Both the position numbers and the translations under genes were made by a program. DNA of 64,000 nucleotides from Fidelibacterota bacterium (GTDB taxonomy: Bacteria > Fidelibacterota > Marinisomatia > Marinisomatales > TCS55). Location: the NCBI GenBank assembly GCA_002724735.1, contig PBPT01000016.1, positions 268,838-332,837 of the forward strand. The letters run 5' to 3'. Positions 1 to 55,895 of this stretch are shown here, piece by piece. The notes under the pieces were generated by a model, which saw only the letters and a list, made by a program, of their open reading frames with translations, made no database searches and was not told where the DNA came from. Positions within the stretch are counted from its first letter, which is position 1; the number at the start of each line of letters is the position of its first letter.

Positions 1-2637
1 GTTAGTATCACATCTGATGATGGTGGATCAAACAATCATGCTTTAGCTGGAGGTTCTTTCTTTGCAACAGAAGTTCCCACATCAAATACACTAAGATATC
101 AAGCACGTACTACAGGTGCAATTGATGTATCAGTTTCTCCTGTTAGTGGTATAGTTTACCCAAGACCAGACAGTTTCTTTGTACATAGACCGTATGATGG
201 AGGTGTGCAACTTGGGACAGGAGGCCCACAACATGGTGCTCAAGCAATACGTCAAAGTAAAAAATATATTAGATATCAGTCAGGTAAAGGTATTATGTAT
301 ACCACAGGTGCATTGTTTGCACCAAGCTATGATCTACAAAGTGTAGTAGCTGAGGATATTGAAGTTGATAGTTTAATTACAGTGGTCACTGATGACAATG
401 ATCATGGGGTACAAGTAGGCGGCGTAATACGTTTATTAGGTATTGAAACAGAAGGTTATAACAGTGGACCTGACACAGCAGTTGGTGAAGAATTTGATTA
501 CACTGTTGTATCTGTTGTAGACGAAAGAACTTTTAAAGTTAGATCGAAAAGAAGGCTGGGTGCTACAACAGCAGTATTAGGCTTTGGAGCACAAATGAGT
601 GTTGTAAGTTGGCACGGTGCAACTGTGCGTTCAGGAATATTTGATGACCAAAACGGAATTTTATGGGAATTTGATGGTACACAAATTAGTGCAGTACAGC
701 GTACTGGTACAAAACAGATTGCCGGAACAATAGCACTTAGCCAAGATTCAAACCTAGTAACAGGTACAAATACAAGATTTAGAGATCAATTAACAGCTGG
801 CGATAGAATTATTATTAAAGGTATGACACATGTAGTTACAAATGTTACCAACGATACTAGTTGCACAATAACACCAGACTGGCGCGGCGTAATTGATATT
901 ACAGGAGCTAAAGTAGCACTAGTAAGAGATAAAAAAGCAAAACAAAGTGAGTTTAATTTAGATAAATTAGACGGCACAGGACCAAGTGGCTATCATATGG
1001 ATATAGCTAAAATGCAAATGATTGGAATACAATATACTTGGTATGGTGCTGGATTTATTGATTGGATGGTTAGAGGTGCAGACGGTAACTTTGTTTTTGC
1101 ACATAGAATGCGTAATTCAAACGTAAACACAGAAGCATTTATGCGTTCAGGTAACTTGCCTGTTAGGTACGAAGTAACAAACGAAGGTCCTCCAGGTAAA
1201 CTTAAGACAGCAATGACAAACAATCAAACAACTATCGAACTAGAAGATAGTAGCTTCTTTCCATATCAAGCCACAGTGTATATTGATAACGAAGTAATGA
1301 CATACACAGCTAATAATAAGGCAACAAATACATTGACTGGAGTTACTAGAAATGCTAGCTTACTTACATTCCAAGCAGGAGCAGAACGTAGTTATACAGG
1401 AGGTCCTGCTACTACACACGATGCAAGGACCGGTGTAATAATTATATCACAAACAATTACTCCATTAATTAGTCATTGGGGTAGTGCGTTCCTAACAGAC
1501 GGTGGATTTGATGAAGATCGTGGATATATTTTTAGTTATGCTGAAACTGGTATTGCTGTTAGTACTACAAAACAGACTGCATTTATGATGCGTTTAGCAC
1601 CTAGTGTTTCTAATGCTATTACAGGTGATTTAGGAGAAAGAGAACTACTTAATCGTGCTCAGCTATTGCTGATGGGTCTTGAAGTTACATCAGAATCAGG
1701 AAGCGGTGGTATTGTTGTTGAAGGTGTGCTTAATCCTCAAAATTATCCACTTAACCCCTCAGATGTAAATTGGTCAGGATTGAGTGGAGTTGCACAAGGT
1801 GGACAACCTAGTTTTGCTCAGATAGCATCAGGTGGTGGTGTTACTTGGACAACAGGTGAATCAGCTACAACTGCTAATATGACATCTGTGGCTGCTCTTA
1901 CTGCACAAGTAAACAGCGGTACATATTCTAACTGGCCTGGTAGTAGATATGTAGAGGTTAGTGGATCAGACTATAGAGCGGTATTTGGTAGTAATGATAT
2001 AAATTTTGTACTAGGTAAATCTATTACAGGTACACATATACCAGCTAATACAACTATTGTAGATGGATATATTCCATCCAGTAATAACTGGGGATACTTT
2101 AGACTTTCTAAAAATACAACAGGTAGTATACCAGGAGGATCAATTGATCACTATACTATTGCTTACAACGCGGCACTTGTTAATAAAAACTATGCTTACT
2201 TAACTACAGCAAGTGTAGATAGTGCGGGTACAGTAGTTGGTACTGCTATTACAGGAATAAGCGGTGGAGGTACGTTCCCTGCTAACACTTATGTAAGTAA
2301 TATTACATCAACTACGTGGGCAAGTTATACTTTTTATGAAATATCATTTAATAACGCATTCACTGGAACACTTGCACTAGGATCAGGAACAATTGAAGCA
2401 ACATTTGAACAACCACCGTTTGCTCAGCCTGGAGAAACTGTGTTCTCATTTATTGCTGTGCCTGGAGAGAGATCTACACTAGATCTTGCTCAGTTGAAAG
2501 AGTTAACAAATACGCCATTAGGTGGCAGAGGAACATTTCCTAATGGACCTGACGTTTTAGCTATTAATGTGTATAAAGTGACTGGCTCAGATATTAATTC
2601 GAATATTATTATTAAATGGGGTGAAGCTCAAGCTTAA
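1..2637 (+). CDS. Phage virion structural protein (baseplate/tail-fibre type), 5' end outside window
   Basis: Frame is open from base 1 (VSITSDDGGSNNHALAGG...), so the listed start at 205 is an internal GTG; Ser/Thr/Gly-rich beta-structured sequence typical of tail proteins. Confidence 0.65.
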   Translation, partial: VSITSDDGGSNNHALAGGSFFATEVPTSNTLRYQARTTGAIDVSVSPVSGIVYPRPDSFFVHRPYDGGVQLGTGGPQHGAQAIRQSKKYIRYQSGKGIMYTTGALFAPSYDLQSVVAEDIEVDSLITVVTDDNDHGVQVGGVIRLLGIETEGYNSGPDTAVGEEFDYTVVSVVDERTFKVRSKRRLGATTAVLGFGAQMSVVSWHGATVRSGIFDDQNGILWEFDGTQISAVQRTGTKQIAGTIALSQDSNLVTGTNTRFRDQLTAGDRIIIKGMTHVVTNVTNDTSCTITPDWRGVIDITGAKVALVRDKKAKQSEFNLDKLDGTGPSGYHMDIAKMQMIGIQYTWYGAGFIDWMVRGADGNFVFAHRMRNSNVNTEAFMRSGNLPVRYEVTNEGPPGKLKTAMTNNQTTIELEDSSFFPYQATVYIDNEVMTYTANNKATNTLTGVTRNASLLTFQAGAERSYTGGPATTHDARTGVIIISQTITPLISHWGSAFLTDGGFDEDRGYIFSYAETGIAVSTTKQTAFMMRLAPSVSNAITGDLGERELLNRAQLLLMGLEVTSESGSGGIVVEGVLNPQNYPLNPSDVNWSGLSGVAQGGQPSFAQIASGGGVTWTTGESATTANMTSVAALTAQVNSGTYSNWPGSRYVEVSGSDYRAVFGSNDINFVLGKSITGTHIPANTTIVDGYIPSSNNWGYFRLSKNTTGSIPGGSIDHYTIAYNAALVNKNYAYLTTASVDSAGTVVGTAITGISGGGTFPANTYVSNITSTTWASYTFYEISFNNAFTGTLALGSGTIEATFEQPPFAQPGETVFSFIAVPGERSTLDLAQLKELTNTPLGGRGTFPNGPDVLAINVYKVTGSDINSNIIIKWGEAQA

Positions 2638-3245
2638 TTTTCTAAACTTTTTACAAAGTCAGAAAGCGTATCAAAAACTTTGGTACGCTTTTTTATTGCT
2701 TTGTAAGTAAATCTATTTAATAATTTTTCTGTTTCTTCACCATATCCGGTGCGTACTAAGATAGGAATAGCACCTATTTTCATTGCGGCCTTTAAATCAG
2801 TAATTTTGTCACCAACATAAAAACCTTGTGCAAACTTTACGTGTGGTATTTCTTTTTCACATCGTTTGAACATTCCTATATTAGGCTTCGCGTACATATC
2901 ATTTTTTCTGCTACTAGCACTATAGTAGATTCCGTCTATACTAGTGCAACCAGCTTTACCTAGTAATTCAAACAAATGCTTATGTACGTTATCTACATCT
3001 TCTTGCGTAAATAATCCTTTTTCAATACCACCTTGATTTGTGATAATTGTAATCTTATGACCTAATCTGCGTAGTTTAGCAATAGCTTCTATGCTACCAG
3101 GAATAGGTTCAAAGTCTTTTATTTTGTAACAATATGTGCCTAGATCTTTGTTGATTACACCATCTCTATCTAATCCTACTACACACTTAGGTGCGATATA
3201 ATTAGGACTAGGATCATAGTCGTCACTCCAACTTATTTCAACCAT
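2634..3245 (-). CDS. gmhB: HAD-family D-glycero-D-manno-heptose 1,7-bisphosphate phosphatase-like (GmhB)
   Basis: GLDRDGVIN, IITNQGGIEKGLFT and YVGDKITDLKAA motifs of the GmhB/HisB-N HAD family. Confidence 0.75.
   Translation of the reverse strand: MVEISWSDDYDPSPNYIAPKCVVGLDRDGVINKDLGTYCYKIKDFEPIPGSIEAIAKLRRLGHKITIITNQGGIEKGLFTQEDVDNVHKHLFELLGKAGCTSIDGIYYSASSRKNDMYAKPNIGMFKRCEKEIPHVKFAQGFYVGDKITDLKAAMKIGAIPILVRTGYGEETEKLLNRFTYKAIKKRTKVFDTLSDFVKSLEN
2664..2694 (+). terminator. Rho-independent terminator of the plus-strand structural gene
   Basis: AAGCGTATCAAA-AAC-TTTGGTACGCTT (12-bp stem, one G-T pair) followed by TTTTA; lies inside the 3' coding end of the convergent gmhB-like gene. Confidence 0.75.
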
Positions 3246-3630
3246 TTTCTGTTTCTTTACTTTGACTGTCGCCTGGAATAAGTCTGTAATTATCTTCTAC
3301 TGAATCAGCTGTACTAACTTCAGTTACTGAACTCATAGGTTCTAAACATTCTAACTGATGAGGTTGTAAAGGAGGATTATGCCAAACATCACCTTCTTTT
3401 AATTCTTTCTCGTGTAACGTAGCATTAGAAGTATCAATCCATCTTACGATAAATTTTCCGCTATTAACAAACCATGTTTCTTCTTTTTCTTTGTGAAAAT
3501 GCATACTAAACTTTGCACCTACTTTTTCAAATACCATTATCTTACCACAGTACTTGTCGTTAGTTGCCCATATTAATTCATAGCCCCAACCTTTGGGTAC
3601 ATGTCCTTCTAATCTTGTAGGTTCTTTCAT
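3238..3630 (-). CDS. Cupin-fold protein (mannose-6-phosphate isomerase-like)
   Basis: GWGYELIWATNDKYCGKIMVFEKVGAKFSMHFHKEKEETWFVNSGKF; ATG at 3630 preferred over the upstream GTG. Confidence 0.6.
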   Translation of the reverse strand: MKEPTRLEGHVPKGWGYELIWATNDKYCGKIMVFEKVGAKFSMHFHKEKEETWFVNSGKFIVRWIDTSNATLHEKELKEGDVWHNPPLQPHQLECLEPMSSVTEVSTADSVEDNYRLIPGDSQSKETENG

Positions 3631-4322
3631 TAGTTCCACATATCCTTTTTCTTATCAAACGAAATATCAAAAACATTCCAGCTCATAGTAATTCTTTCTA
3701 CATCACTTTGAAATGGATAAACCTGATGCCTTAGTTCTGCTGGGAATACAAAAATTTGTCCAGTTTTAGGAATAATCCTATGTGCGCCTGCGCCATAACT
3801 ACCATGCACAAATTCTAATTGTCCAGGGCATCTTGCATTAGAATCCATAGGAAATATATCGGGTTCAGTAGCTATTACTTCCGGAACTTCAACCATTATA
3901 ATACCGCTTAACGTACCTGTATGGCAATGCAAAGGATTAAATTCGTGTTGCTTCATAAAATTAAACCATACACCATTTCCTAAATGCCATTTCATGCTGT
4001 CATAGTCAACTGTTTCTATCATAATTTTTTTTTCGCTAGAAGCACCTGCATTAATTAACTTTCTTTGGTCATCAGCAATTATCCAATTTATAATATGCGG
4101 ACGTAGTACTTCCATCATAGTAGATAGCATTTTTGGATCAGCTTTTTCATTACCTCGTTGTTCTTTTATATTTCCTGATAAAGCAGACCCTTGCGATGCA
4201 GAATCTCTATTTATTTCTGCAAAACTTTTTACAAATTTTATATCTTCCTCACTTATTTTACTTTCATAAATCATAGGTCCAAACGGACAAAGTATATTAT
4301 GATCTCCGTTATTCTGTAGCAT
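3630..4322 (-). CDS. Putative 2OG-Fe(II) oxygenase
   Basis: FNPLHCHTGTLSGIIMVEVPE ... GQIFVFPAELRHQVYPF resembles the TIGR02466-like oxygenase family of marine phages. Confidence 0.55.
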   Translation of the reverse strand: MLQNNGDHNILCPFGPMIYESKISEEDIKFVKSFAEINRDSASQGSALSGNIKEQRGNEKADPKMLSTMMEVLRPHIINWIIADDQRKLINAGASSEKKIMIETVDYDSMKWHLGNGVWFNFMKQHEFNPLHCHTGTLSGIIMVEVPEVIATEPDIFPMDSNARCPGQLEFVHGSYGAGAHRIIPKTGQIFVFPAELRHQVYPFQSDVERITMSWNVFDISFDKKKDMWN

Positions 4323-5130
4323 TAATATATTCCTTTATACCTTTCCAATCCATTTCAATCACAGTATTTAATTTGTCTAGATTTGCACAAGTATATTTTT
4401 GGTACTGAGGCTTAATATTATCTGGAATTGGAATATAATTAATTGTAGCATCGTATTTTTTTGCAATTTCTCTAGCTACGTTTTCAAAGCTTTCTGGATT
4501 TCCTGTTCCAACATTGTAGATGCCGCTTGCATCGACAGTCAACATTTTTTGATGTACTTTACAAACATCTTCAACACAAACAAAGTCACGTTTGTACTCA
4601 CTGCTACCTTCAAATACATCAATCTTTCCTTCATCTAACGCTTGTAATCTAAACTTAGTCCAAGGAGATGCTTGGCTTCCTTTATCATTTTCGCCAGGTC
4701 CATATACGTTAAAATATCTAAATCCTTGTACAAGCACAGTAAATTCTTCAATATGTTTAATTACAAATCGGTCAAATAAATATTTTGACCATGCATACGG
4801 AGATTGAGGAAGTAAAGGTCCATTTTCTGTAAAATGTGTAGTAGGACCATAAACACTAGCACTAGAAGCATATTGAAAATTAGTTCCATAATTTTCACAA
4901 ACCTGCAACATACGCATACTATTTTCAAAGTTTTGTTCAATTATTTGATCTACATCTGTATATGTAGTGCTTGTAATAGCACCAAGATGAATGACCCAAT
5001 CATATGAACTAGGATCTGGCACAGTATTATCTATATACTCCCAACCCTCCACATCATGTCCTTGGGTAAGCAAATAGTTAGATAAATTTTTTCCGATAAA
5101 TCCTTTATATCCAGTTACTAGTATTCTCAT
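4309..5130 (-). CDS. hldD: ADP-glyceromanno-heptose 6-epimerase-like NAD-dependent epimerase
   Basis: MRILVTGYKGFIGKNL Rossmann motif, YAWSKYLFDRF catalytic motif, RYFNVYGPGE and DFVCVEDV as in HldD/RfaD. Confidence 0.75.
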   Translation of the reverse strand: MRILVTGYKGFIGKNLSNYLLTQGHDVEGWEYIDNTVPDPSSYDWVIHLGAITSTTYTDVDQIIEQNFENSMRMLQVCENYGTNFQYASSASVYGPTTHFTENGPLLPQSPYAWSKYLFDRFVIKHIEEFTVLVQGFRYFNVYGPGENDKGSQASPWTKFRLQALDEGKIDVFEGSSEYKRDFVCVEDVCKVHQKMLTVDASGIYNVGTGNPESFENVAREIAKKYDATINYIPIPDNIKPQYQKYTCANLDKLNTVIEMDWKGIKEYINATE

Positions 5131-5735
5131 TTACACGGCACTCCGTTGTTATCATAAGGTAATTGCATGTCCTTTTCCCAATGATTCCGATATCTTATAT
5201 CTTCGTCATCCATTAGTGCATGCCATTTAGGATCATCTCTCCAAGGTATAAAATTAAAATTAATTACTACTCTTCTAAGTTTGTCTGTACAACTAGCACC
5301 ACTATGTCTAATTTTTGCAGGAAAAATAACCAATGTATTCTCAACACTTTCGACTTTGTCTCCATCTTCGAAAATAGTGTATCCATTATTAGTATTTAAA
5401 TAGTATACCGCAGTTAATGCACCTGGAATAACTGTGTCATTATGCATGCCATGTACTTCGTTTGTATCTGTTTTTGTAAGTAAGTTTGCCTTTACCCTTA
5501 TTAGTAATTGAGGACCCAACACATCCATGACAGGATATATTACCTGATAGTCATTTGGTCGATCCATATAATAACCTTCATGTATTGTATGGACAAATTG
5601 AAAGTTACCAACATCGCCTTTATCTGCTACACCTTCTCCATAATGCCAATTGTATTGTAAACTTAACATATGTTCTTGGATTTTTTTAAACACTTCTTTT
5701 GGCACAGCATTATCAATTACTACCTTTTTTGTCAT
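5127..5735 (-). CDS. 2OG-Fe(II) oxygenase (prolyl-4-hydroxylase-like)
   Basis: VHGMHNDTVIPGALTAVYYLN ... VIFPAKIRHSGAS: H-x-D ... H arrangement. Confidence 0.65.
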   Translation of the reverse strand: MTKKVVIDNAVPKEVFKKIQEHMLSLQYNWHYGEGVADKGDVGNFQFVHTIHEGYYMDRPNDYQVIYPVMDVLGPQLLIRVKANLLTKTDTNEVHGMHNDTVIPGALTAVYYLNTNNGYTIFEDGDKVESVENTLVIFPAKIRHSGASCTDKLRRVVINFNFIPWRDDPKWHALMDDEDIRYRNHWEKDMQLPYDNNGVPCK

Positions 5736-6871
5736 TTAATATCCTCTATTATTTTTGTTGTAGAATAACCTTCTAACGTAGGAATAATTTTCACTTCTGC
5801 TAAGTCATTACCTACAACTGTATCTGTAGTATAATCGCCTCCTTTTACAATTATACTTGGCATTATATGTTTTATAAGTTCATAAGGAGTATCATAATCA
5901 AAAACATGTACCTCGTCAACCCAAGGTAACATTGCTAATTGTTCAGTGCGTTTTTTTACATCATTAATAGGGCGATCATTACCCTTTAATCTTTTTACAC
6001 TATCATCTGAATTAATTGCTACAACAAGACGACTTCCTAGTTTACTAGCTTCTTGAAGTAAATGCAAATGTCCTTTGTGCAATATATCAAAAACACCGTT
6101 AGTAAACACAGTGGTTTCTTCAATATCATCTAATGAAAGCGTGTACGTTCCTAAGTGCTTAACACTTTCGGTTGCTCCTTTAGATGCAAGTTCTAAGCTA
6201 TCTTTTATGTTTTTACCTTTTGTAAGACCATATACAAATGCCGCTAAGAAACAATCTCCTGCTCCAGTAACATCACTAACCTCAACCTGTTCAGGTATAA
6301 TAAAATGTTGCTCGCCATCAAACTCTGCTCTAATAGCACCAGATGCATTTGTAACAATAATATTTCCTTCGTGCTTATCAAACTGAAATTCTTTATATTC
6401 TTTTGCATTTGGTTTTACAAGCCATGCATTTTTGTAATGTGTATAATTACGTTTTGGATCTACAATAACTTTACAGCCATAACTATTAATATGGTCTATA
6501 ATTTCATTACAGTGATCTAATACACCTTTGTTATAATCACTTAGTATAGCATAATCAAATGAAGAAAAATCACTTTTGAGAATATTTTTTAATACAGCTT
6601 TTCCGTCTGCTTTTTGATCTTCATCTAGTCTTGTAATGTAGTGTCCATCAGCTATAATTCTAGTTTTTACACTTTTTGGTTGTTCATTAGATACTAATGT
6701 TACATCTACACCTAAATTTTTTAAATTGCTACTTACAAGACCAGCGCCACCTAATGAAGTTTTAACATCTGTAAGATTCACTATTGGCACAGGAGCCTCA
6801 GGACTAATACGTGTAGAAGTACCGTAGATGTATTTGTCAGTAATTATATCTCCAAGAACTAGAACTTTCAT
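5732..6871 (-). CDS. hldE: Bifunctional heptose-7-phosphate kinase / heptose-1-phosphate adenylyltransferase
   Basis: PfkB kinase domain (MKVLVLGDIITDKYIYG ... DVTGAGDCFLAAF) followed by TVFTNGVFDILHKGHLHLL nucleotidyltransferase domain. Confidence 0.85.
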   Translation of the reverse strand: MKVLVLGDIITDKYIYGTSTRISPEAPVPIVNLTDVKTSLGGAGLVSSNLKNLGVDVTLVSNEQPKSVKTRIIADGHYITRLDEDQKADGKAVLKNILKSDFSSFDYAILSDYNKGVLDHCNEIIDHINSYGCKVIVDPKRNYTHYKNAWLVKPNAKEYKEFQFDKHEGNIIVTNASGAIRAEFDGEQHFIIPEQVEVSDVTGAGDCFLAAFVYGLTKGKNIKDSLELASKGATESVKHLGTYTLSLDDIEETTVFTNGVFDILHKGHLHLLQEASKLGSRLVVAINSDDSVKRLKGNDRPINDVKKRTEQLAMLPWVDEVHVFDYDTPYELIKHIMPSIIVKGGDYTTDTVVGNDLAEVKIIPTLEGYSTTKIIEDIK

Positions 6872-42859: not shown

Positions 42860-43245
42860 ATTTGTTTCAGGATGGAGATTTTATAAGCCATGCAGGATTA
42901 CCGTTACAATGGAAATTAGAGTGTGATGCTATAAGTGATGCTGAATGGCGTTGTATTGCAAAAATGATTATGACGTACCAACATGAACCTTTTAGTAAAG
43001 TAATAGGAATACCAAGAGGCGGACTTCCATTACAAAAAGCAATGGAAGAATATGTTACTAAAGGTGATCATCCTTGGATGGTTGTAGATGATGTATATAC
43101 AACAGGAACAAGTTTTAAAAATTTTTGCACTACTAAAGATACAATGTGGGCATATAAATGGTGTGTCTTTGCTCGCAAACCTATACCAATAGATGACAAT
43201 GTAAATGCTTTATTTACAATGCCCCCGGAGAAAAAAGATGATTAG
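42856..43245 (+). CDS. Phosphoribosyltransferase-like protein
   Basis: VIGIPRGGLPLQKAMEE ... WMVVDDVYTTGTSF (PRPP loop). Confidence 0.7.
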   Translation: MNLFQDGDFISHAGLPLQWKLECDAISDAEWRCIAKMIMTYQHEPFSKVIGIPRGGLPLQKAMEEYVTKGDHPWMVVDDVYTTGTSFKNFCTTKDTMWAYKWCVFARKPIPIDDNVNALFTMPPEKKDD

Positions 43246-44020
43246 AATAATTGCAGGCCCTTGCCAACATGAGTCTCTAGAACATAGTTTATTAATTGCT
43301 CAAACATGTAAAGATGTTTGCGACAAATACGGAGCAGATTACTATTTTAAAGCCAGTTTTGATAAAGCTAACAGAAGTAGCATTGGTGGGAAACGTGGCC
43401 AGGGTTTTGCAATTACACTTACAGACTTTGAACATATCAAAGAACAAACAGGTGTAAAAATACTGACTGATGTTCATACAATTGAACATATTCATGACAT
43501 ACATCATTACTATGATAATGTAATTGATGTTATACAAATACCAGCTTTCTTGTGTAGACAAACTGACTTAGTACAGGCGGCTTGTAAGACAAATAAGATA
43601 GTTAATATTAAGAAAGGCCAGTTCCTTGCACCCTGGGACATGGAAGGTATTCTGTCAAAGACAGAAGGTGCCAAAGAAGTTTGGATAACAGAGAGAGGAA
43701 CAAGTTTTGGATATAATACTCTTGTTGTTGACTTTACTGGTTTGGACTATATGCTTAATAATTATAGTACCCCTGTGGTACTTGATGCCACGCACGGAGT
43801 ACAAAAACCAGGCGGTCTTGGAGGCAGTAGCGGCGGCAATCGCGATTACGTTCCTGGCTTATGTCGTGCAGGTAGTGCTTTGGGGATTACAAATTTCTTT
43901 TTAGAAGTTCATCCAGATCCTGATAATGCACCAAGTGATGGTCCTAATATGTTAAGACTAGAGGACTTTGATAAAGTAGTAGGAGAGATACATGAATACA
44001 GCTATTCTAATTCCAGCTAG
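43238..44020 (+). CDS. kdsA: 3-deoxy-8-phosphooctulonate synthase
   Basis: IIAGPCQHES, YFKASFDKANRSS, TDVHTIEH, VIQIPAFLCRQTDLVQAA, VVLDATHGVQKPGG. Confidence 0.9.
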   Translation: MIRIIAGPCQHESLEHSLLIAQTCKDVCDKYGADYYFKASFDKANRSSIGGKRGQGFAITLTDFEHIKEQTGVKILTDVHTIEHIHDIHHYYDNVIDVIQIPAFLCRQTDLVQAACKTNKIVNIKKGQFLAPWDMEGILSKTEGAKEVWITERGTSFGYNTLVVDFTGLDYMLNNYSTPVVLDATHGVQKPGGLGGSSGGNRDYVPGLCRAGSALGITNFFLEVHPDPDNAPSDGPNMLRLEDFDKVVGEIHEYSYSNSS

Positions 44021-44705
44021 AATCGGATCAACTCGCTTTCCTGATAAACCATTAAAACTATTAAATGGTGTACCGATGATACGTAGAGTGTACGATCGTT
44101 GCTTAGAGACGGGCTTAGACACCTTTGTGCTTACAGATAGTAGGCGTGTAGCTAGTTTATTTCCCGAAGGAAATGTATGGGTAGATGATACTCCATTCGA
44201 AAATGGTACAGAAAGATGTGCTGGATATATGGCAGAAATGCAAAGGCAGAAATTACATGCTACTGGTTATGGTTGGGATTATGACTACGATCAATTTGTA
44301 AATGTGCAAGGTGATATGCCTGATATTACTGTAAGTATAATTGAAAAATGTATTTGGCAATTAAAAAACTATCCTATTACTACAGTGTTTACAAACATGC
44401 CAAAAGAAAAACAGAATGACCCAAGCACAGTAAAAATGGTACGTGCAGGTGATCAAGCATTATGGTTTGGTAGGGGACTTACAGGTTATGGAGAATGGCA
44501 CCTAGGTGTATATGGATATACACGTAATGCATTAAGTGTTTATCCAAATTTAGTAGTTTCTCAAGAAGAAGATGTTGAAAAATTAGAACAGTTACGCTGG
44601 TTAAAAAGTGGTTGGCAAATAGGCTGTTTGAGTGTACAATATAATGGTATGGAGATTAATACTCCTGAGGACTTGAAAGAATGGCACAGCAAAAACTCCC
44701 AGTAA
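43992..44705 (+). CDS. kdsB: CMP-Kdo synthetase (3-deoxy-manno-octulosonate cytidylyltransferase)
   Basis: TAILIPARIGSTRFPDKPLKLLNGVPMIRRVYDRC, NVQGDMP, HLGVYGYTRNAL, GWQIGCLSV. Confidence 0.88.
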   Translation: MNTAILIPARIGSTRFPDKPLKLLNGVPMIRRVYDRCLETGLDTFVLTDSRRVASLFPEGNVWVDDTPFENGTERCAGYMAEMQRQKLHATGYGWDYDYDQFVNVQGDMPDITVSIIEKCIWQLKNYPITTVFTNMPKEKQNDPSTVKMVRAGDQALWFGRGLTGYGEWHLGVYGYTRNALSVYPNLVVSQEEDVEKLEQLRWLKSGWQIGCLSVQYNGMEINTPEDLKEWHSKNSQ

Positions 44706-45139
44706 AAGATATACTTGCGGCAATTGATATGAACGCAAAAAGTGTCTGGGACGAACTATCTGAAGATGAGCGTAAACAGGTTAGCTTTTGGTTACTTAAT
44801 AGATATGCTAGTAGTGTAACTGGTAATAGAGAAAAACAAGAACTAGCTGTATTTAAAACAAACGAATACTACAACAAAAACTTTAATGTACTAGGTACAA
44901 GGCATCCTAAATTACAATGGCAACTATTATGCACAAGCGGTGCAACAGGCAAAATTGAATTTCACAAATGGATCGGATTCAAAAAGAAAACAAGCGATAA
45001 CAGCAAAGGCGAAAAATTAATTCAAGACATTTATCCAAACATGAAAATAGACGAGGTAGAATTACTTGCTAGAATATCTACAAAAAAAGAACTCTTACAA
45101 CTTGCAGAAGAACACGGAATCGAGAATGTCAAACTCTGA
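44681..45139 (+). CDS. 62: Sliding clamp loader small subunit gp62-like
   Basis: VKDILAAIDMNAKSVWDELSEDERKQVSFWLLNRYASSV ... NEYYNKNFNVLGTRHPKLQWQLLCTSG. Confidence 0.6.
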   Translation: MAQQKLPVKDILAAIDMNAKSVWDELSEDERKQVSFWLLNRYASSVTGNREKQELAVFKTNEYYNKNFNVLGTRHPKLQWQLLCTSGATGKIEFHKWIGFKKKTSDNSKGEKLIQDIYPNMKIDEVELLARISTKKELLQLAEEHGIENVKL

Positions 45140-46963: not shown

Positions 46964-47475
46964 AATTATTATACTATCCAAATGACTGGCTTGAAAAAAC
47001 AGTCAAAGAAGTTGATTTAGAAAATCCTGGATTTGATCCAAAAGAGCTACACAAACAAATGGTAGATCTTATGTTGTCTAGCAAAGGTATAGGATTAAGT
47101 GCAAATCAGATAGGATTAGATGCAAAAGTTTTTGTAATGGGAGATAAACCAGACAATACAAATATATGCATAAATCCAACAGTTGTACAGTATACTGAGG
47201 ACACTGTAATAGATTTAGAAGGATGTCTAAGTTTTCCTCATGTCTATGTAAAATTACGTAGACCAAAAGAAATACTTGCAGAATTTTATGATGAAAATTT
47301 AGAAAAGCAAACTGTTAAAATTGATGGATATAGTGCAAAGTGTTACTTGCACGAACTAGATCATTTGCTTGGTATTACTATGAAAGATCGTTGTAGTAAA
47401 TTAAAATGGAATATGGCTATTAAAAAGTCAGCAAAGTATAAAAAGTTATATGAGTTAGAAAATGCAAGATCTTAG
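46960..47475 (+). CDS. def: Peptide deformylase
   Basis: GIGLSANQIG, EGCLSFP and CYLHELDHLLG (HExxH-type) motifs. Confidence 0.85.
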   Translation: MKLLYYPNDWLEKTVKEVDLENPGFDPKELHKQMVDLMLSSKGIGLSANQIGLDAKVFVMGDKPDNTNICINPTVVQYTEDTVIDLEGCLSFPHVYVKLRRPKEILAEFYDENLEKQTVKIDGYSAKCYLHELDHLLGITMKDRCSKLKWNMAIKKSAKYKKLYELENARS

Positions 47476-47719
47476 TCAACTAGTACGTGCATTAAAAAAA
47501 GGAGTTGTTACAATTACCTTTAAAAAAATTGATACTAATGAAATTAGGATTATGCCATGTACTCTTAATCAGGACCTTATGGATAATATAAAATTAGCTA
47601 TAAAAAATATACGCCCAGAAAGTACAAGCATAGTAGTGTATGCTCTTGATAAAAAAGCTATAAGAGATGTAAGGGTAAACACAATACAAGATTGGTACAT
47701 AGGAAATCCAGATGCCTGA
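47462..47719 (+). CDS. Small conserved phage protein
   Basis: VTITFKKIDTNEIRIMPCTLN. Confidence 0.55.
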   Translation: MQDLSQLVRALKKGVVTITFKKIDTNEIRIMPCTLNQDLMDNIKLAIKNIRPESTSIVVYALDKKAIRDVRVNTIQDWYIGNPDA

Positions 47720-48296
47720 TATTGATATAGATTTTGCTGATAGATCAGTAATACTAGATCAACTTAAACATAGAGTTGCAAAGTTAGATACTGGCAAAAA
47801 ACATAACACAGGAATTTATGCTAATGAAATTCCGCATAATCCTGTTGATAATTTAGCAACACTTGAACACAAGGAAGCTGAAAAACGAGGATATTTTAAA
47901 CTGGACTTTTTAAATGTGAGCATATACAAAGATATAAAAAATGAAGAACACTTAACCCAATTAATAGAAAGGAAACCATTATGGGAACTATTGGAGCACG
48001 ACAGCTTCGTCGATCAAGTCTTTCACGTCAACGGTCACGGAGATCTATTGAGACAATTGAAACCTACCTCGGTAGAACAATTAGCGGCAACACTAGCCAT
48101 AATACGTCCAGCCAAGAGACATCTAGCAAACGAACAGTGGCCAACGATAATGAAAGAAGTATGGACAAAACCATCAAACGGTGATTACTATTTTAAGAAA
48201 GCACATGCAATTAGCTATGCTGTAGCTGTAGTAGTGCATATGAATTTAATCTGTGAAAACTTAGAAAAGAGCGAAGATGGATTGGGAAGCATATGA
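47712..48296 (+). CDS. Miniature DNA polymerase III alpha-like protein
   Basis: MPDIDIDFADR..., GYFKLDFLNVSIYKDI, LLEHDSFVDQVFHVNGHGDLLRQLKPTSVEQLAATLAIIRPAKRHL, YYFKKAHAISYAVAV align in order with bacterial DnaE blocks. Confidence 0.55.
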   Translation: MPDIDIDFADRSVILDQLKHRVAKLDTGKKHNTGIYANEIPHNPVDNLATLEHKEAEKRGYFKLDFLNVSIYKDIKNEEHLTQLIERKPLWELLEHDSFVDQVFHVNGHGDLLRQLKPTSVEQLAATLAIIRPAKRHLANEQWPTIMKEVWTKPSNGDYYFKKAHAISYAVAVVVHMNLICENLEKSEDGLGSI

Positions 48297-48510
48297 TTAT
48301 AGGCCAAAAAGGCCTAAAGAACCCCAACCGTGGTTAAAGTGGCAAGTTCCTAAAGAACAGTGTTTAGGATATATTACAAATATTTTTATGTTTATTATTT
48401 TTGTTCCTGGCCTATTAGGGTTTGCATTAACTCCTATAGGTATTGCACTACAAATACTTGTGATAGATTACTTTATGTGGATTAGATATAAAATGACTTT
48501 AAACGATTAG
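48277..48510 (+). CDS. Small membrane protein
   Basis: Two hydrophobic segments (YITNIFMFIIFVPGLLGFALTPIGIALQILVI). Confidence 0.55.
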   Translation: MDWEAYDYRPKRPKEPQPWLKWQVPKEQCLGYITNIFMFIIFVPGLLGFALTPIGIALQILVIDYFMWIRYKMTLND

Positions 48511-48881
48511 TCTCTTGGAGGTTTGCGTACTAGCTGTACACTTTTTCTTTTAATTCTTTTGACTGCTAAATTATTTAAATTAACACATGGTCCTATACTT
48601 ACTTTAACATCTTTACTATTCATTGTCATTATACAATACTTATAGGGTTTCATTTCTATTGCTAAAAATATGTTTATAGGAATCATTCTATTTGATTCCC
48701 ACCACCATACATCACCTAGCTCTAAAAATCTTTCTTGTTCTGCTTTAGTATGTAATTCTGTATACACATACATGCTAGTAACGCTAGCGTCTTGATTAAT
48801 TACAATACCGATATATTCTTGTCCGCCGTAGTTTACAACGCTTAAAAAAGGGAAGTTGTTCTCTATATCTTTAGTTAACAT
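48507..48881 (-). CDS. Hypothetical phage protein
   Basis: Isolated minus-strand ORF, stop codon overlaps the convergent stop (TTAG). Confidence 0.5.
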   Translation of the reverse strand: MLTKDIENNFPFLSVVNYGGQEYIGIVINQDASVTSMYVYTELHTKAEQERFLELGDVWWWESNRMIPINIFLAIEMKPYKYCIMTMNSKDVKVSIGPCVNLNNLAVKRIKRKSVQLVRKPPRD

Positions 48882-50743: not shown

Positions 50744-51724
50744 ATGAGTGTAGTCAACGATACAGTTCTGACATATCTGCCGCCTAAGCGTAAACAAACG
50801 CCTAGCGGGTGGACCGCATTCAATGCGCCTTGTTGTCAACATAATGGGACTACAGCTGACACAAGACAGCGTGGTGGTTTAATATCAAACGCTGATGGGG
50901 TAAGTTACCATTGTTTCAACTGTGGTTATAAAGCTAGCTGGCAACAAGGTCGCAATCTAAGTGTTAAAATGAGAAAGTTACTACAATGGTTAAATGCACC
51001 AGATGATGTAATTAACAAACTTGCACTTACTGTAATGCAGGAGAACGAAGGCATACAAGTAAAACAGCAACTTGTAGAAGTACCTAAGTTTAATACTGTG
51101 CCGTTGCCATTAGATGCAGTAAGCATTGCAGAGTGTTCAAACACTAGTGAGCATTTTGCACAAGTAGTTAACTATATGAAACAAAGAAAATTGTTCTTAG
51201 AAGATTACAACTACTATTGGTCTCCATCATTAGGATATAGAGATAGACTAATTATACCTTTTTACTATGAAGACCGTATTGTGGGCTGGACTGCAAGATC
51301 TGTGAATGATAATAAAAAGGTAAAATATCTTTCAGAGCAACAGCCAGGATATGTGTTTAACTTAGATGATCAACGCCCTGCAAAAATATTTGTAATTGTA
51401 TGCGAAGGTCCTATAGATGCTATCCATATCGAAGGCGTTGCACTATTAGGAAGCGAAGCCAAAGATCAACAAGCACTATTAATTAATAGATTAAATAAAG
51501 ATGTAATAGTAGTGCCTGACAGAGATAAAGCGGGTTCGAAACTTGTAGAACAAGCCATAGACTTTGGCTGGGGAGTTTCTTTACCACCTTGGGGCGATAA
51601 CATTAATGACATTGGAGATGCAGTAGAGCATTATGGCAGGATTTTTACTCTACACAGTATTGTAAGTCATGCTGAAACTTCTCCTTTAAAAATAAGATTA
51701 GGAGCAAAAAAATGGTTTATTTAA
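50744..51724 (+). CDS. 61: DNA primase gp61-like
   Basis: Zinc ribbon CCQHNGT..YHCFNCGYKASW, TOPRIM region KIFVIVCEGPIDAIHIEGVALLG, VVPDRDKAGSKLV. Confidence 0.85.
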   Translation: MSVVNDTVLTYLPPKRKQTPSGWTAFNAPCCQHNGTTADTRQRGGLISNADGVSYHCFNCGYKASWQQGRNLSVKMRKLLQWLNAPDDVINKLALTVMQENEGIQVKQQLVEVPKFNTVPLPLDAVSIAECSNTSEHFAQVVNYMKQRKLFLEDYNYYWSPSLGYRDRLIIPFYYEDRIVGWTARSVNDNKKVKYLSEQQPGYVFNLDDQRPAKIFVIVCEGPIDAIHIEGVALLGSEAKDQQALLINRLNKDVIVVPDRDKAGSKLVEQAIDFGWGVSLPPWGDNINDIGDAVEHYGRIFTLHSIVSHAETSPLKIRLGAKKWFI

Positions 51725-54467: not shown

Positions 54468-55895
54468 ATGGCAACAAGACAAAACACAGACTATGGATAT
54501 GATATACAAAAAGTATATCTTGAAATGATGCTAACAGATGCAGAAACATTTGTTAGATGTCAAACAGTATTTGATCATACAATGTTTGATAGGCGTTTAC
54601 AAGATGCCGCAAAGTTTCTAAATGAATATGTAACAGAACACAATGCATTGCCTACATTTGAAATAATTAATGCGGCAACAAAAGCAGACTTAGCTGATCC
54701 AGGACAGATGCAAGAAAATCACTACGATTGGCTACTAGCAGAGTTTGAAACATTTAGCAGACACAAGGCACTAGAAAGTGCAATATTAAAAGGTGCTGAT
54801 TTACTTGAAAAGGGCGAATATGGTCCGGTAGAAGATCTAGTTAAGAAAGCAGTACAGATAGGATTGCAAAAAGACTTAGGTACAGACTACTGGCGTGATC
54901 CAAGAGCAAGATTAGAAGCAATTAAAGATAATAACGGACAAGTAACTACAGGTTGGGAAAGCCTAGATAAGAAACTATTTGGTGGATTTAATAGAGGTGA
55001 GCTGAATATATTTGCAGGTGGATCAGGTGCAGGTAAAAGTTTATTCTTAGCTAACCTAGGAGTTAATTGGGCACTAGCAGGAATGAACGTATTGTATCTT
55101 ACACTAGAGCTAAGTGAAAACTTAGTTAGTATGAGAGTTGACAGTATGGTAACTGATATTTCAACACGTGATATTTTTAAGAATATAGATGATGTTGAAA
55201 TGAAAGTTAAAATGATAGGCAAAAAGAGTGGAGCATTTCAAGTAAAATATATGCCTAGTGGTAAGACTCCAAATGATGTGCGTAGCTATATTAAAGAATA
55301 TGAAATTAAAACAGGACGTAAGATTGATGTACTATTGATTGATTACTTAGACTTGCTTATGCCAAATGGTGCTAAGGTAAGTGCTGAAAACTTGTTTATT
55401 AAAGACAAGTATGTAAGTGAAGAACTACGTAATCTAGCAATGGAGTTGAATACTGTATTTGTAACAGCGGCACAGCTAAACAGAGGTGCAGTAGAAGAAA
55501 TTGAATTTGATCATTCGCATATTAGTGGTGGACTTAGTAAGATTCAAACTGCTGATAATGTTATAGGTATCTTTACTAGTAGAGCAATGCGTGAACGTGG
55601 TAGATATCAAATACAGCTAATGAAAACTAGAAGCAGTAGTGGTGTTGGTGCTAAGGTAGATCTTGAATTTGATGTAGACAGTTTGCGTATTAGAGATCTA
55701 GCAGATGATGAAGAATATCAAGAATTTGATAAACGCAACAGCACAATATATGATAGCTTGAAGAGAAAGACTGTTCCCGAAACAGGTGATCCAGAAGATG
55801 CAGATCCTACACAAGGTGATACAGTAGGCAAGATTAAAGCAGAAACAGATTCAACCAAATTAAGAAACTTCATCAATAATTTAGGATCAGAGTAA
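54468..55895 (+). CDS. 41: Replicative DNA helicase gp41
   Basis: GGFNRGELNIFAGGSGAGKSLFLANLGVNWA, VLLIDYLDLLMPN, VTAAQLNRGAVE. Confidence 0.9.
   Translation: MATRQNTDYGYDIQKVYLEMMLTDAETFVRCQTVFDHTMFDRRLQDAAKFLNEYVTEHNALPTFEIINAATKADLADPGQMQENHYDWLLAEFETFSRHKALESAILKGADLLEKGEYGPVEDLVKKAVQIGLQKDLGTDYWRDPRARLEAIKDNNGQVTTGWESLDKKLFGGFNRGELNIFAGGSGAGKSLFLANLGVNWALAGMNVLYLTLELSENLVSMRVDSMVTDISTRDIFKNIDDVEMKVKMIGKKSGAFQVKYMPSGKTPNDVRSYIKEYEIKTGRKIDVLLIDYLDLLMPNGAKVSAENLFIKDKYVSEELRNLAMELNTVFVTAAQLNRGAVEEIEFDHSHISGGLSKIQTADNVIGIFTSRAMRERGRYQIQLMKTRSSSGVGAKVDLEFDVDSLRIRDLADDEEYQEFDKRNSTIYDSLKRKTVPETGDPEDADPTQGDTVGKIKAETDSTKLRNFINNLGSE

What the first reader, a model, noticed from the sequence alone, without database searches (positions are those of the whole stretch)
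47712..48296. 194-aa miniature of bacterial DNA polymerase III alpha palm
Conserved DnaE blocks occur in order but extremely compacted: PDIDIDF (cf. PDFDIDF with two catalytic Asp), GYFKLDFLNVSIYKDI (cf. GLVKFDFLGLRTLTII with the third Asp), LLEHDSFVDQVFHVNGHGDLLRQLKPTSVEQLAATLAIIRPAKRHL (cf. [35 protein letters not shown]), and YYFKKAHAISYAVAV (cf. FNKSHSAAYALVSYQT). All three catalytic Asp positions appear kept although the protein is about one sixth of a DnaE. It sits with peptide deformylase and clamp-loader gp62. It could be a decoy, a clamp-interacting regulator, or a minimal nucleotidyltransferase.
Basis: partly seen in the sequence, partly recalled or inferred. Interest (0 to 1): 0.8.

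Follow-up and report, generated by a model that had tools for sequence, protein, structure and literature searches.

The report
C-terminal half of a split phage polymerase
This large phage carries a stripped-down copy of the bacterial replication polymerase cut into two separate genes far apart in the genome; the finding is the second half, and because the active-site residues of both halves never vary, the two proteins very probably come together as one enzyme, a design predicted in 2021 but never tested at the bench as far as could be found.

Summary
Window 47712-48296 encodes a 194-aa protein with the ordered DnaE blocks (catalytic D5, D7, D65), under purifying selection, conserved in at least 90 jumbo-phage records and over 540 metagenomic stretches. 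It is not a self-contained miniature: it starts exactly at PDIDIDF and lacks the phosphate-binding GS motif. That missing part is a separate 173-aa gene on the same phage contig, 213 kb away (C57:102917-103438), ending ...GVGRGSSVASY...FNEFMR, a few residues (in DnaE numbering) before the finding begins. Both halves occur nearly one to one in phages, always as separate genes (14-224 kb apart in eleven genomes), with GRGS, the three Asp, K63, R132/P133/K135 and H165 invariant in ten divergent phages. The C-half sits with primase and gp41 helicase, the N-half with clamp loader gp44; a family B polymerase is also present. PHP, thumb and clamp-binding regions are missing, so decoy and clamp-binding ideas fail. 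Most likely it is one subunit of a heterodimeric minimal family C polymerase working beside gp43. Iyer et al. 2021 (PMC7824862) predicted this split enzyme, so this is a new member of a known, untested kind. Side result: marine relatives carry an additional single-chain ~545-aa PHP-less DnaE.

The parts
47712..48296 (+). C-terminal half of split minimal PolIII alpha (194 aa): PDIDIDF (D5, D7), KLD (D65), finger block ending IRPAK, FKKAH block
   Evidence: ORF; PHROG 11778 3.8e-60; invariant catalytic residues; Foldseek ranks 1-15 all DNA polymerase chains, mostly PolIII alpha
47715..47735 (+). PDIDIDF codons (residues 2-8), start of the C-half; the two catalytic Asp are D5 and D7
   Evidence: sequence; mapped to E. 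coli D401/D403
47898..47906 (+). KLD codons (residues 63-65) with third catalytic Asp D65 = E. coli D555
   Evidence: sequence; mapping; invariant in 57 aligned sequences and in 10 divergent phages
48507..48881 (-). Convergent 124-aa gene (PHROG 11637, unknown function), conserved directly downstream of the C-half
   Evidence: in 81 of 82 loci with enough sequence; phrog_11637 2e-31
50744..51724 (+). DnaG/gp61-type primase, conserved downstream of the C-half
   Evidence: phrog_47 6.1e-38; 61 of 62 loci
54468..55895 (+). gp41 DnaB-like helicase, conserved downstream
   Evidence: phrog_19 2.2e-69; 45 of 47 loci
44681..45139 (+).
   Evidence: 71 of 76 loci; phrog_11758 unknown function; no PDB match

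Best explanation
The protein is the C-terminal subunit of a two-gene, minimal family C (PolIII-alpha/DnaE-like) DNA polymerase. The N-subunit (173 aa, C57:102917-103438, outside the window) supplies the helix and GRGS motif that hold the incoming nucleotide's phosphates; the C-subunit (this finding) supplies the three metal-binding Asp and the fingers residues. The two assemble without covalent joining into one palm-fingers catalytic core of about 367 aa. Without PHP, thumb or clamp-binding domain it should be a low-processivity, non-proofreading polymerase that works next to primase-helicase and clamp loader as a helper of the family B replicase gp43, for example extending primers or filling gaps. 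Shown: homology, the exact split, co-occurrence, invariant active site, synteny, and gp43 on the same contig. Inferred: heterodimer formation, catalytic activity and the accessory role.
For: A second PolIII-alpha fragment lies on the same contig (PF07733 1.7e-10): 173 aa, ending GVGRGSSVASYILYLIGVHKVNSIQYGLDFNEFMR-stop (phrog_11127 8.3e-43). All 80 N-half relatives fetched end at xEF[LM]R(D)-stop; C-halves of the close clade begin M/L-PDIDIDF. C-half in 90 phage records, N-half in 87, with almost identical counts by host genus; all ten phage records tested carry both, as separate genes. GRGS of the N-half and D5, D7, K63, D65, R132, P133, K135, H165 of the C-half are invariant in ten phages with mean identity of only 37% (N) and 45% (C). 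Synteny: C-half with convergent gene, primase and gp41; N-half with gp44 and a gp31-like gene. gp43 (899 aa, DNA_pol_B with exonuclease domain) on the contig. The half-palm parts are modelled poorly alone while the fingers part is confident, as expected if the palm needs its partner.
Against: No experiment. The structure tool takes one chain at a time, so the complex is not modelled. Low confidence of the half palms may also reflect shallow alignments. Loss of the thumb is unusual for a polymerase, so catalysis may be of another kind. Correlated N and C distances (r=0.87, ten phages) are expected from shared ancestry alone. The N-half was not found in several incomplete contigs of 74-262 kb that have the C-half, which is uninformative for fragments.
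Confidence: 0.78

Rival explanations
1. The two halves assemble into an active nucleotidyltransferase that is not a template-copying replisome polymerase, for example a terminal transferase, end-modifying or short-gap repair enzyme.
For: Complete active-site residue set over two chains but no thumb and no processivity parts: D to D spacing is 58 residues instead of 152.
Against: The fingers blocks and the conserved place beside primase, helicase and clamp loader fit a replication role.
Confidence: 0.2
2. The pair has a structural or regulatory role in the phage replisome and the active site is retained for nucleotide or metal binding rather than catalysis.
For: No thumb; a gp43 with polymerase and exonuclease domains is present, so a second polymerase is not obviously needed.
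Against: All catalytic residues stay invariant at 37-45% identity, which is hard to explain without catalysis.
Confidence: 0.1
3. A decoy or regulator of the host polymerase or beta clamp.
For: Homology to host PolIII alpha.
Against: PHP and clamp-binding regions of DnaE are missing; PHP hits in the assembly lie only on contigs C1 and C3, not on the phage contig; the conserved residues are catalytic.
Confidence: 0.04
4. A decaying fragment of a host dnaE captured by the phage.
For: Annotators called it 'truncated' (phage CBB, PMC5259590).
Against: pN/pS 0.17-0.25; constant length 185-191 aa; the same split in widely different phages.
Confidence: 0.01

Closest known systems
Split minimal DNA polymerase III alpha of 'group 2.2' jumbo phages (Iyer et al. 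2021, PMC7824862); PHROG 11127 + PHROG 11778
   Same: Two separate, distant genes for the NTP-binding half and the Mg/template-binding half; family B polymerase alongside; PHP not found on the contig.
   Different: Nothing of substance in this phage. Added here: exact junction, near one-to-one co-occurrence counts, residue invariance, synteny of each half.
'DNA polymerase III alpha' proteins of phages CBB (CBB_328) and Atu_ph07 (gp316)
   Same: Same phage group; small PolIII-alpha-like proteins beside a T4-like replisome (PMC5259590, PMC6102473).
   Different: Those papers describe a truncated or single alpha subunit and the passages read do not describe the split.
Bacterial DnaE (E. coli DnaE; DnaE of the assembly, C3)
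   Same: GRGS, PDxDxDF, KxD, FRPG and FNKSH blocks in order.
   Different: One chain of 1145-1160 aa with PHP, thumb, full fingers and HHH/OB parts; here two chains, 367 aa in all.
Single-chain PHP-less DnaE (~545 aa) of marine relatives, found here (L210:8001-9641)
   Same: Reduced family C polymerase with GS motif and PDVDIDF, in the same neighbourhood; 23 fetched loci carry both genes.
   Different: Unsplit and much closer to ordinary DnaE (phrog_405 4.6e-68; phrog_11127 only 3.4e-4); not found on the window's phage contig.

Membership tests
Split minimal PolIII alpha (Iyer et al. 2021) | C-half with PDxDxDF, third Asp and template-binding fingers as a stand-alone protein | tested here: met
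   phrog_11778 3.8e-60; residues mapped
Split minimal PolIII alpha (Iyer et al. 2021) | N-half with NTP-binding GS motif encoded by a distant separate gene of the same phage | tested here: met
   C57:102917-103438, 213 kb away
Split minimal PolIII alpha (Iyer et al. 2021) | Family B replicase in the same phage | tested here: met
   899-aa gp43-type PolB on C57
Split minimal PolIII alpha (Iyer et al. 2021) | Other PolIII-alpha domains absent from the phage | tested here: inconclusive
   PHP not found on C57; HHH and OB domains were not searched over the whole contig; C57 may be incomplete
Split minimal PolIII alpha (Iyer et al. 2021) | Two halves reconstitute an active enzyme | not testable with these tools
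   needs biochemistry; also only proposed in the 2021 paper
Bacterial family C replicase (DnaE) | Palm catalytic triad and fingers motifs | tested here: met
   over two chains
Bacterial family C replicase (DnaE) | PHP domain | tested here: not met
   absent from both halves and from C57
Bacterial family C replicase (DnaE) | Thumb domain between second and third Asp | tested here: not met
   58 residues versus 152 in E. coli
Stand-alone minimal nucleotidyltransferase | GS motif and Asp residues in one chain | tested here: not met
   the C-half starts at PDIDIDF; the GS motif is on the other gene
Beta-clamp decoy | Clamp-binding region of PolIII alpha | tested here: not met
   the chain ends about 29 residues after the FNKSH-equivalent, whereas DnaE continues for 400; other clamp-binding peptides not tested

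The most novel reading that the evidence does not exclude
The two proteins form a genuinely heterodimeric DNA polymerase: a family C catalytic core of about 367 aa without thumb, PHP or clamp-binding domain whose single active site is assembled from two trans-encoded chains, possibly each delivered by its own replisome partners (C-half with primase-helicase, N-half with clamp loader), acting beside a family B replicase at the same fork.
Probability: 0.5. Interest if true: 0.75.

Novelty: new member of a known kind. Interest (0 to 1): 0.42.

Why it matters
A polymerase whose active site is shared by two distantly encoded proteins would be the smallest family C polymerase known (to my knowledge) and a test of how little of DnaE is needed for catalysis. 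Iyer et al. read it as a relic of an early form of PolIII; biochemistry on the pair would test that and the idea that a bacterial-type and a eukaryote-like polymerase share one phage replisome. The halves are often annotated 'hypothetical protein' or 'truncated DNA polymerase III', so the link is easily missed.

Tried and rejected
Decoy, clamp regulator and stand-alone nucleotidyltransferase: rejected for missing domains and the missing GS motif. Pseudogene: rejected (pN/pS, constant length). N-half fold search: the N-half model was too poor (mean pLDDT 58.7) and its matches (integrases and others) are meaningless. PDB sequence search of the upstream ORF to confirm gp62: nothing. Search for a fused form of the split pair: none found; the single-chain 545-aa proteins looked like one at first but are closer to ordinary DnaE. 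The 484-kb record LR756508 has a single-chain form and no split C-half found. A deep phylogeny to test 'primordial versus host-derived' was not made: no PolC set was in hand and only short alignable blocks exist. The distance correlation of N and C (r=0.87) was judged uninformative.

Full report
What is there. The ORF at 47712-48296 (+) is real, 194 aa, and carries the DnaE blocks in order. It overlaps the previous ORF (WYL_2/SH3-like, 47462-47719) by eight bases. It belongs to PHROG 11778 'DNA polymerase' (E=3.8e-60) and matches the full phage DnaE profile phrog_405 (2.9e-8). Relatives: 90 jumbo-phage records (RaK2-like, PA5oct-like, Atu_ph07, Phosso, SCTP-2, XacN1, Vibrio 2.275.O) and at least 544 IMG/VR stretches. 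Against close relatives pN/pS is 0.17-0.25.

It is half an enzyme. In E. coli DnaE the nucleotidyltransferase core has GRGS..GS at 361-368 and then PDFDVDF at 400-406. The finding starts at PDIDIDF and has no GS motif. A search of the window's own assembly for the PolIII-alpha palm (PF07733) found two places: the full bacterial DnaE on contig C3 and a 173-aa gene on the phage contig C57 itself. That gene (C57:102917-103438) matches DnaE over its last 75 residues (phrog_11127 8.3e-43; PF07733 1.2e-10) and ends GVGRGSSVASYILYLIGVHKVNSIQYGLDFNEFMR-stop. The junction FNEFMR | MPDIDIDF corresponds to ERFL(NPERVS)MPDFDVDF of DnaE: the cut falls in the loop just before the catalytic strand. The window lies at C57:268838-332837, so the two genes are 213 kb apart on a 335-kb contig.

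The split is old and strict. All 80 N-half relatives fetched stop at the same point; C-halves of the close clade all start at PDIDIDF. In phage genomes both halves are present as separate genes: nine of nine first tested, and Stenotrophomonas phage RAS14. Counted over the phage collection, 90 records hold the C-half and 87 the N-half, with nearly identical counts per host genus. Distances between the halves range from about 14 kb (RAS14, XacN1) to 224 kb (Phosso).

The active site is shared. Over ten phages with mean identities of 37% (N) and 45% (C), GxGRGS of the N-half and D3, D5, D7, K63, D65, R132, P133, K135, H165 and Y169 of the C-half are invariant. The catalytic residues are thus kept across two chains, which is best explained by one composite active site. 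AF2 gives confident fingers and a poor half palm for the C-half (mean pLDDT 80.5; residues 1-70 about 55-69) whose first 15 PDB matches are all DNA polymerases, mostly PolIII alpha (probability up to 0.99 but E-values only 0.01 and weaker); the N-half alone is modelled poorly (58.7).

What is lost. D to D spacing is 58 residues instead of 152 (thumb region), R to H spacing 33 instead of 121 (much of the fingers), and everything after the FNKSH block plus the whole PHP domain is missing. Domain names of these regions follow the published E. coli and Taq alpha structures (own knowledge).

Surroundings. Downstream of the C-half lie a convergent 124-aa gene (PHROG 11637; 81 of 82 loci), primase (61 of 62) and gp41 helicase (45 of 47); a 152-aa ORF lies upstream in 71 of 76. 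The N-half is followed by a 144-aa gene, a gp31/GroES-like gene and, in at least 57 of 90 loci, clamp loader gp44. The phage contig also encodes a family B polymerase with exonuclease domain. So this is a T4-like replisome with an additional family C enzyme.

Comparison with what is known. Iyer et al. 2021 (PMC7824862; [quoted passage not shown] Earlier genome papers noticed only a truncated (CBB) or an ordinary (Atu_ph07) alpha subunit (PMC5259590, PMC6102473). No paper with biochemistry was found in the library searched. The finding is therefore a new member of a known, untested kind.

Side result. In marine relatives a further single-chain family C polymerase of about 545 aa (PF07733 1.3e-43 and PF17657 1.7e-15; no PHP) lies 6-8 kb from the C-half, past gp41; 23 of 80 fetched loci carry both. 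It resembles ordinary DnaE more than the split halves. It was not found on the window's phage contig, and in that assembly a 99.8% identical second contig (C77) ends exactly at the end of gp41 (window 55898), shortly before the place where relatives carry the extra gene, which hints at strain variation there (inference). PolB and the N-half proper were not seen on four contigs with the 545-aa gene (58-155 kb), but these are fragments.

Verdict. Observation confirmed; interpretation partly supported; best reading: C-subunit of a split minimal PolIII alpha, probably catalytic only together with its N-subunit.

Noticed in passing
L210:8001-9641 (also L222, L223, L228, L229, L247, L259 and others): Single-chain, PHP-less ~545-aa family C polymerase downstream of gp41 in marine relatives that also carry the split C-half; about 239 stretches in IMG/VR. 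No description of it was found in the papers searched.
   Followed up: partly
window 48507-48881 (-): PHROG 11637 gene of unknown function, convergent with the C-half and kept next to it in 81 of 82 relatives: possible functional partner or antisense arrangement.
   Followed up: partly
window 55898 / G000:C77: Second contig C77 is 99.8% identical to the window over 20 kb and breaks at the end of gp41, close to where relatives carry the extra 545-aa polymerase.
   Followed up: partly
window 2634-6871 (-) and 43238-44705 (+): Phage-encoded ADP-heptose genes (GmhB-, HldD- and HldE-like) and KDO genes (KdsA 2.4e-99, KdsB-like 7.3e-46), with many apparent glycosyltransferase-like ORFs (28-38 kb): possibly LPS inner-core sugar synthesis.
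   Followed up: partly
C57:102669-106641 (L095): Next to the N-half: 144-aa acidic protein, gp31/GroES-like, MazG-like pyrophosphatase, Rv2179c-like exonuclease, gp44 clamp loader, then a ThyX-like ORF further on; each half of the split polymerase has its own replisome neighbourhood.
   Followed up: partly
LR756508.1:47385-49013 (L297): 484-kb uncultured phage with a single-chain family C polymerase (37% identical) and no split C-half found.
   Followed up: partly
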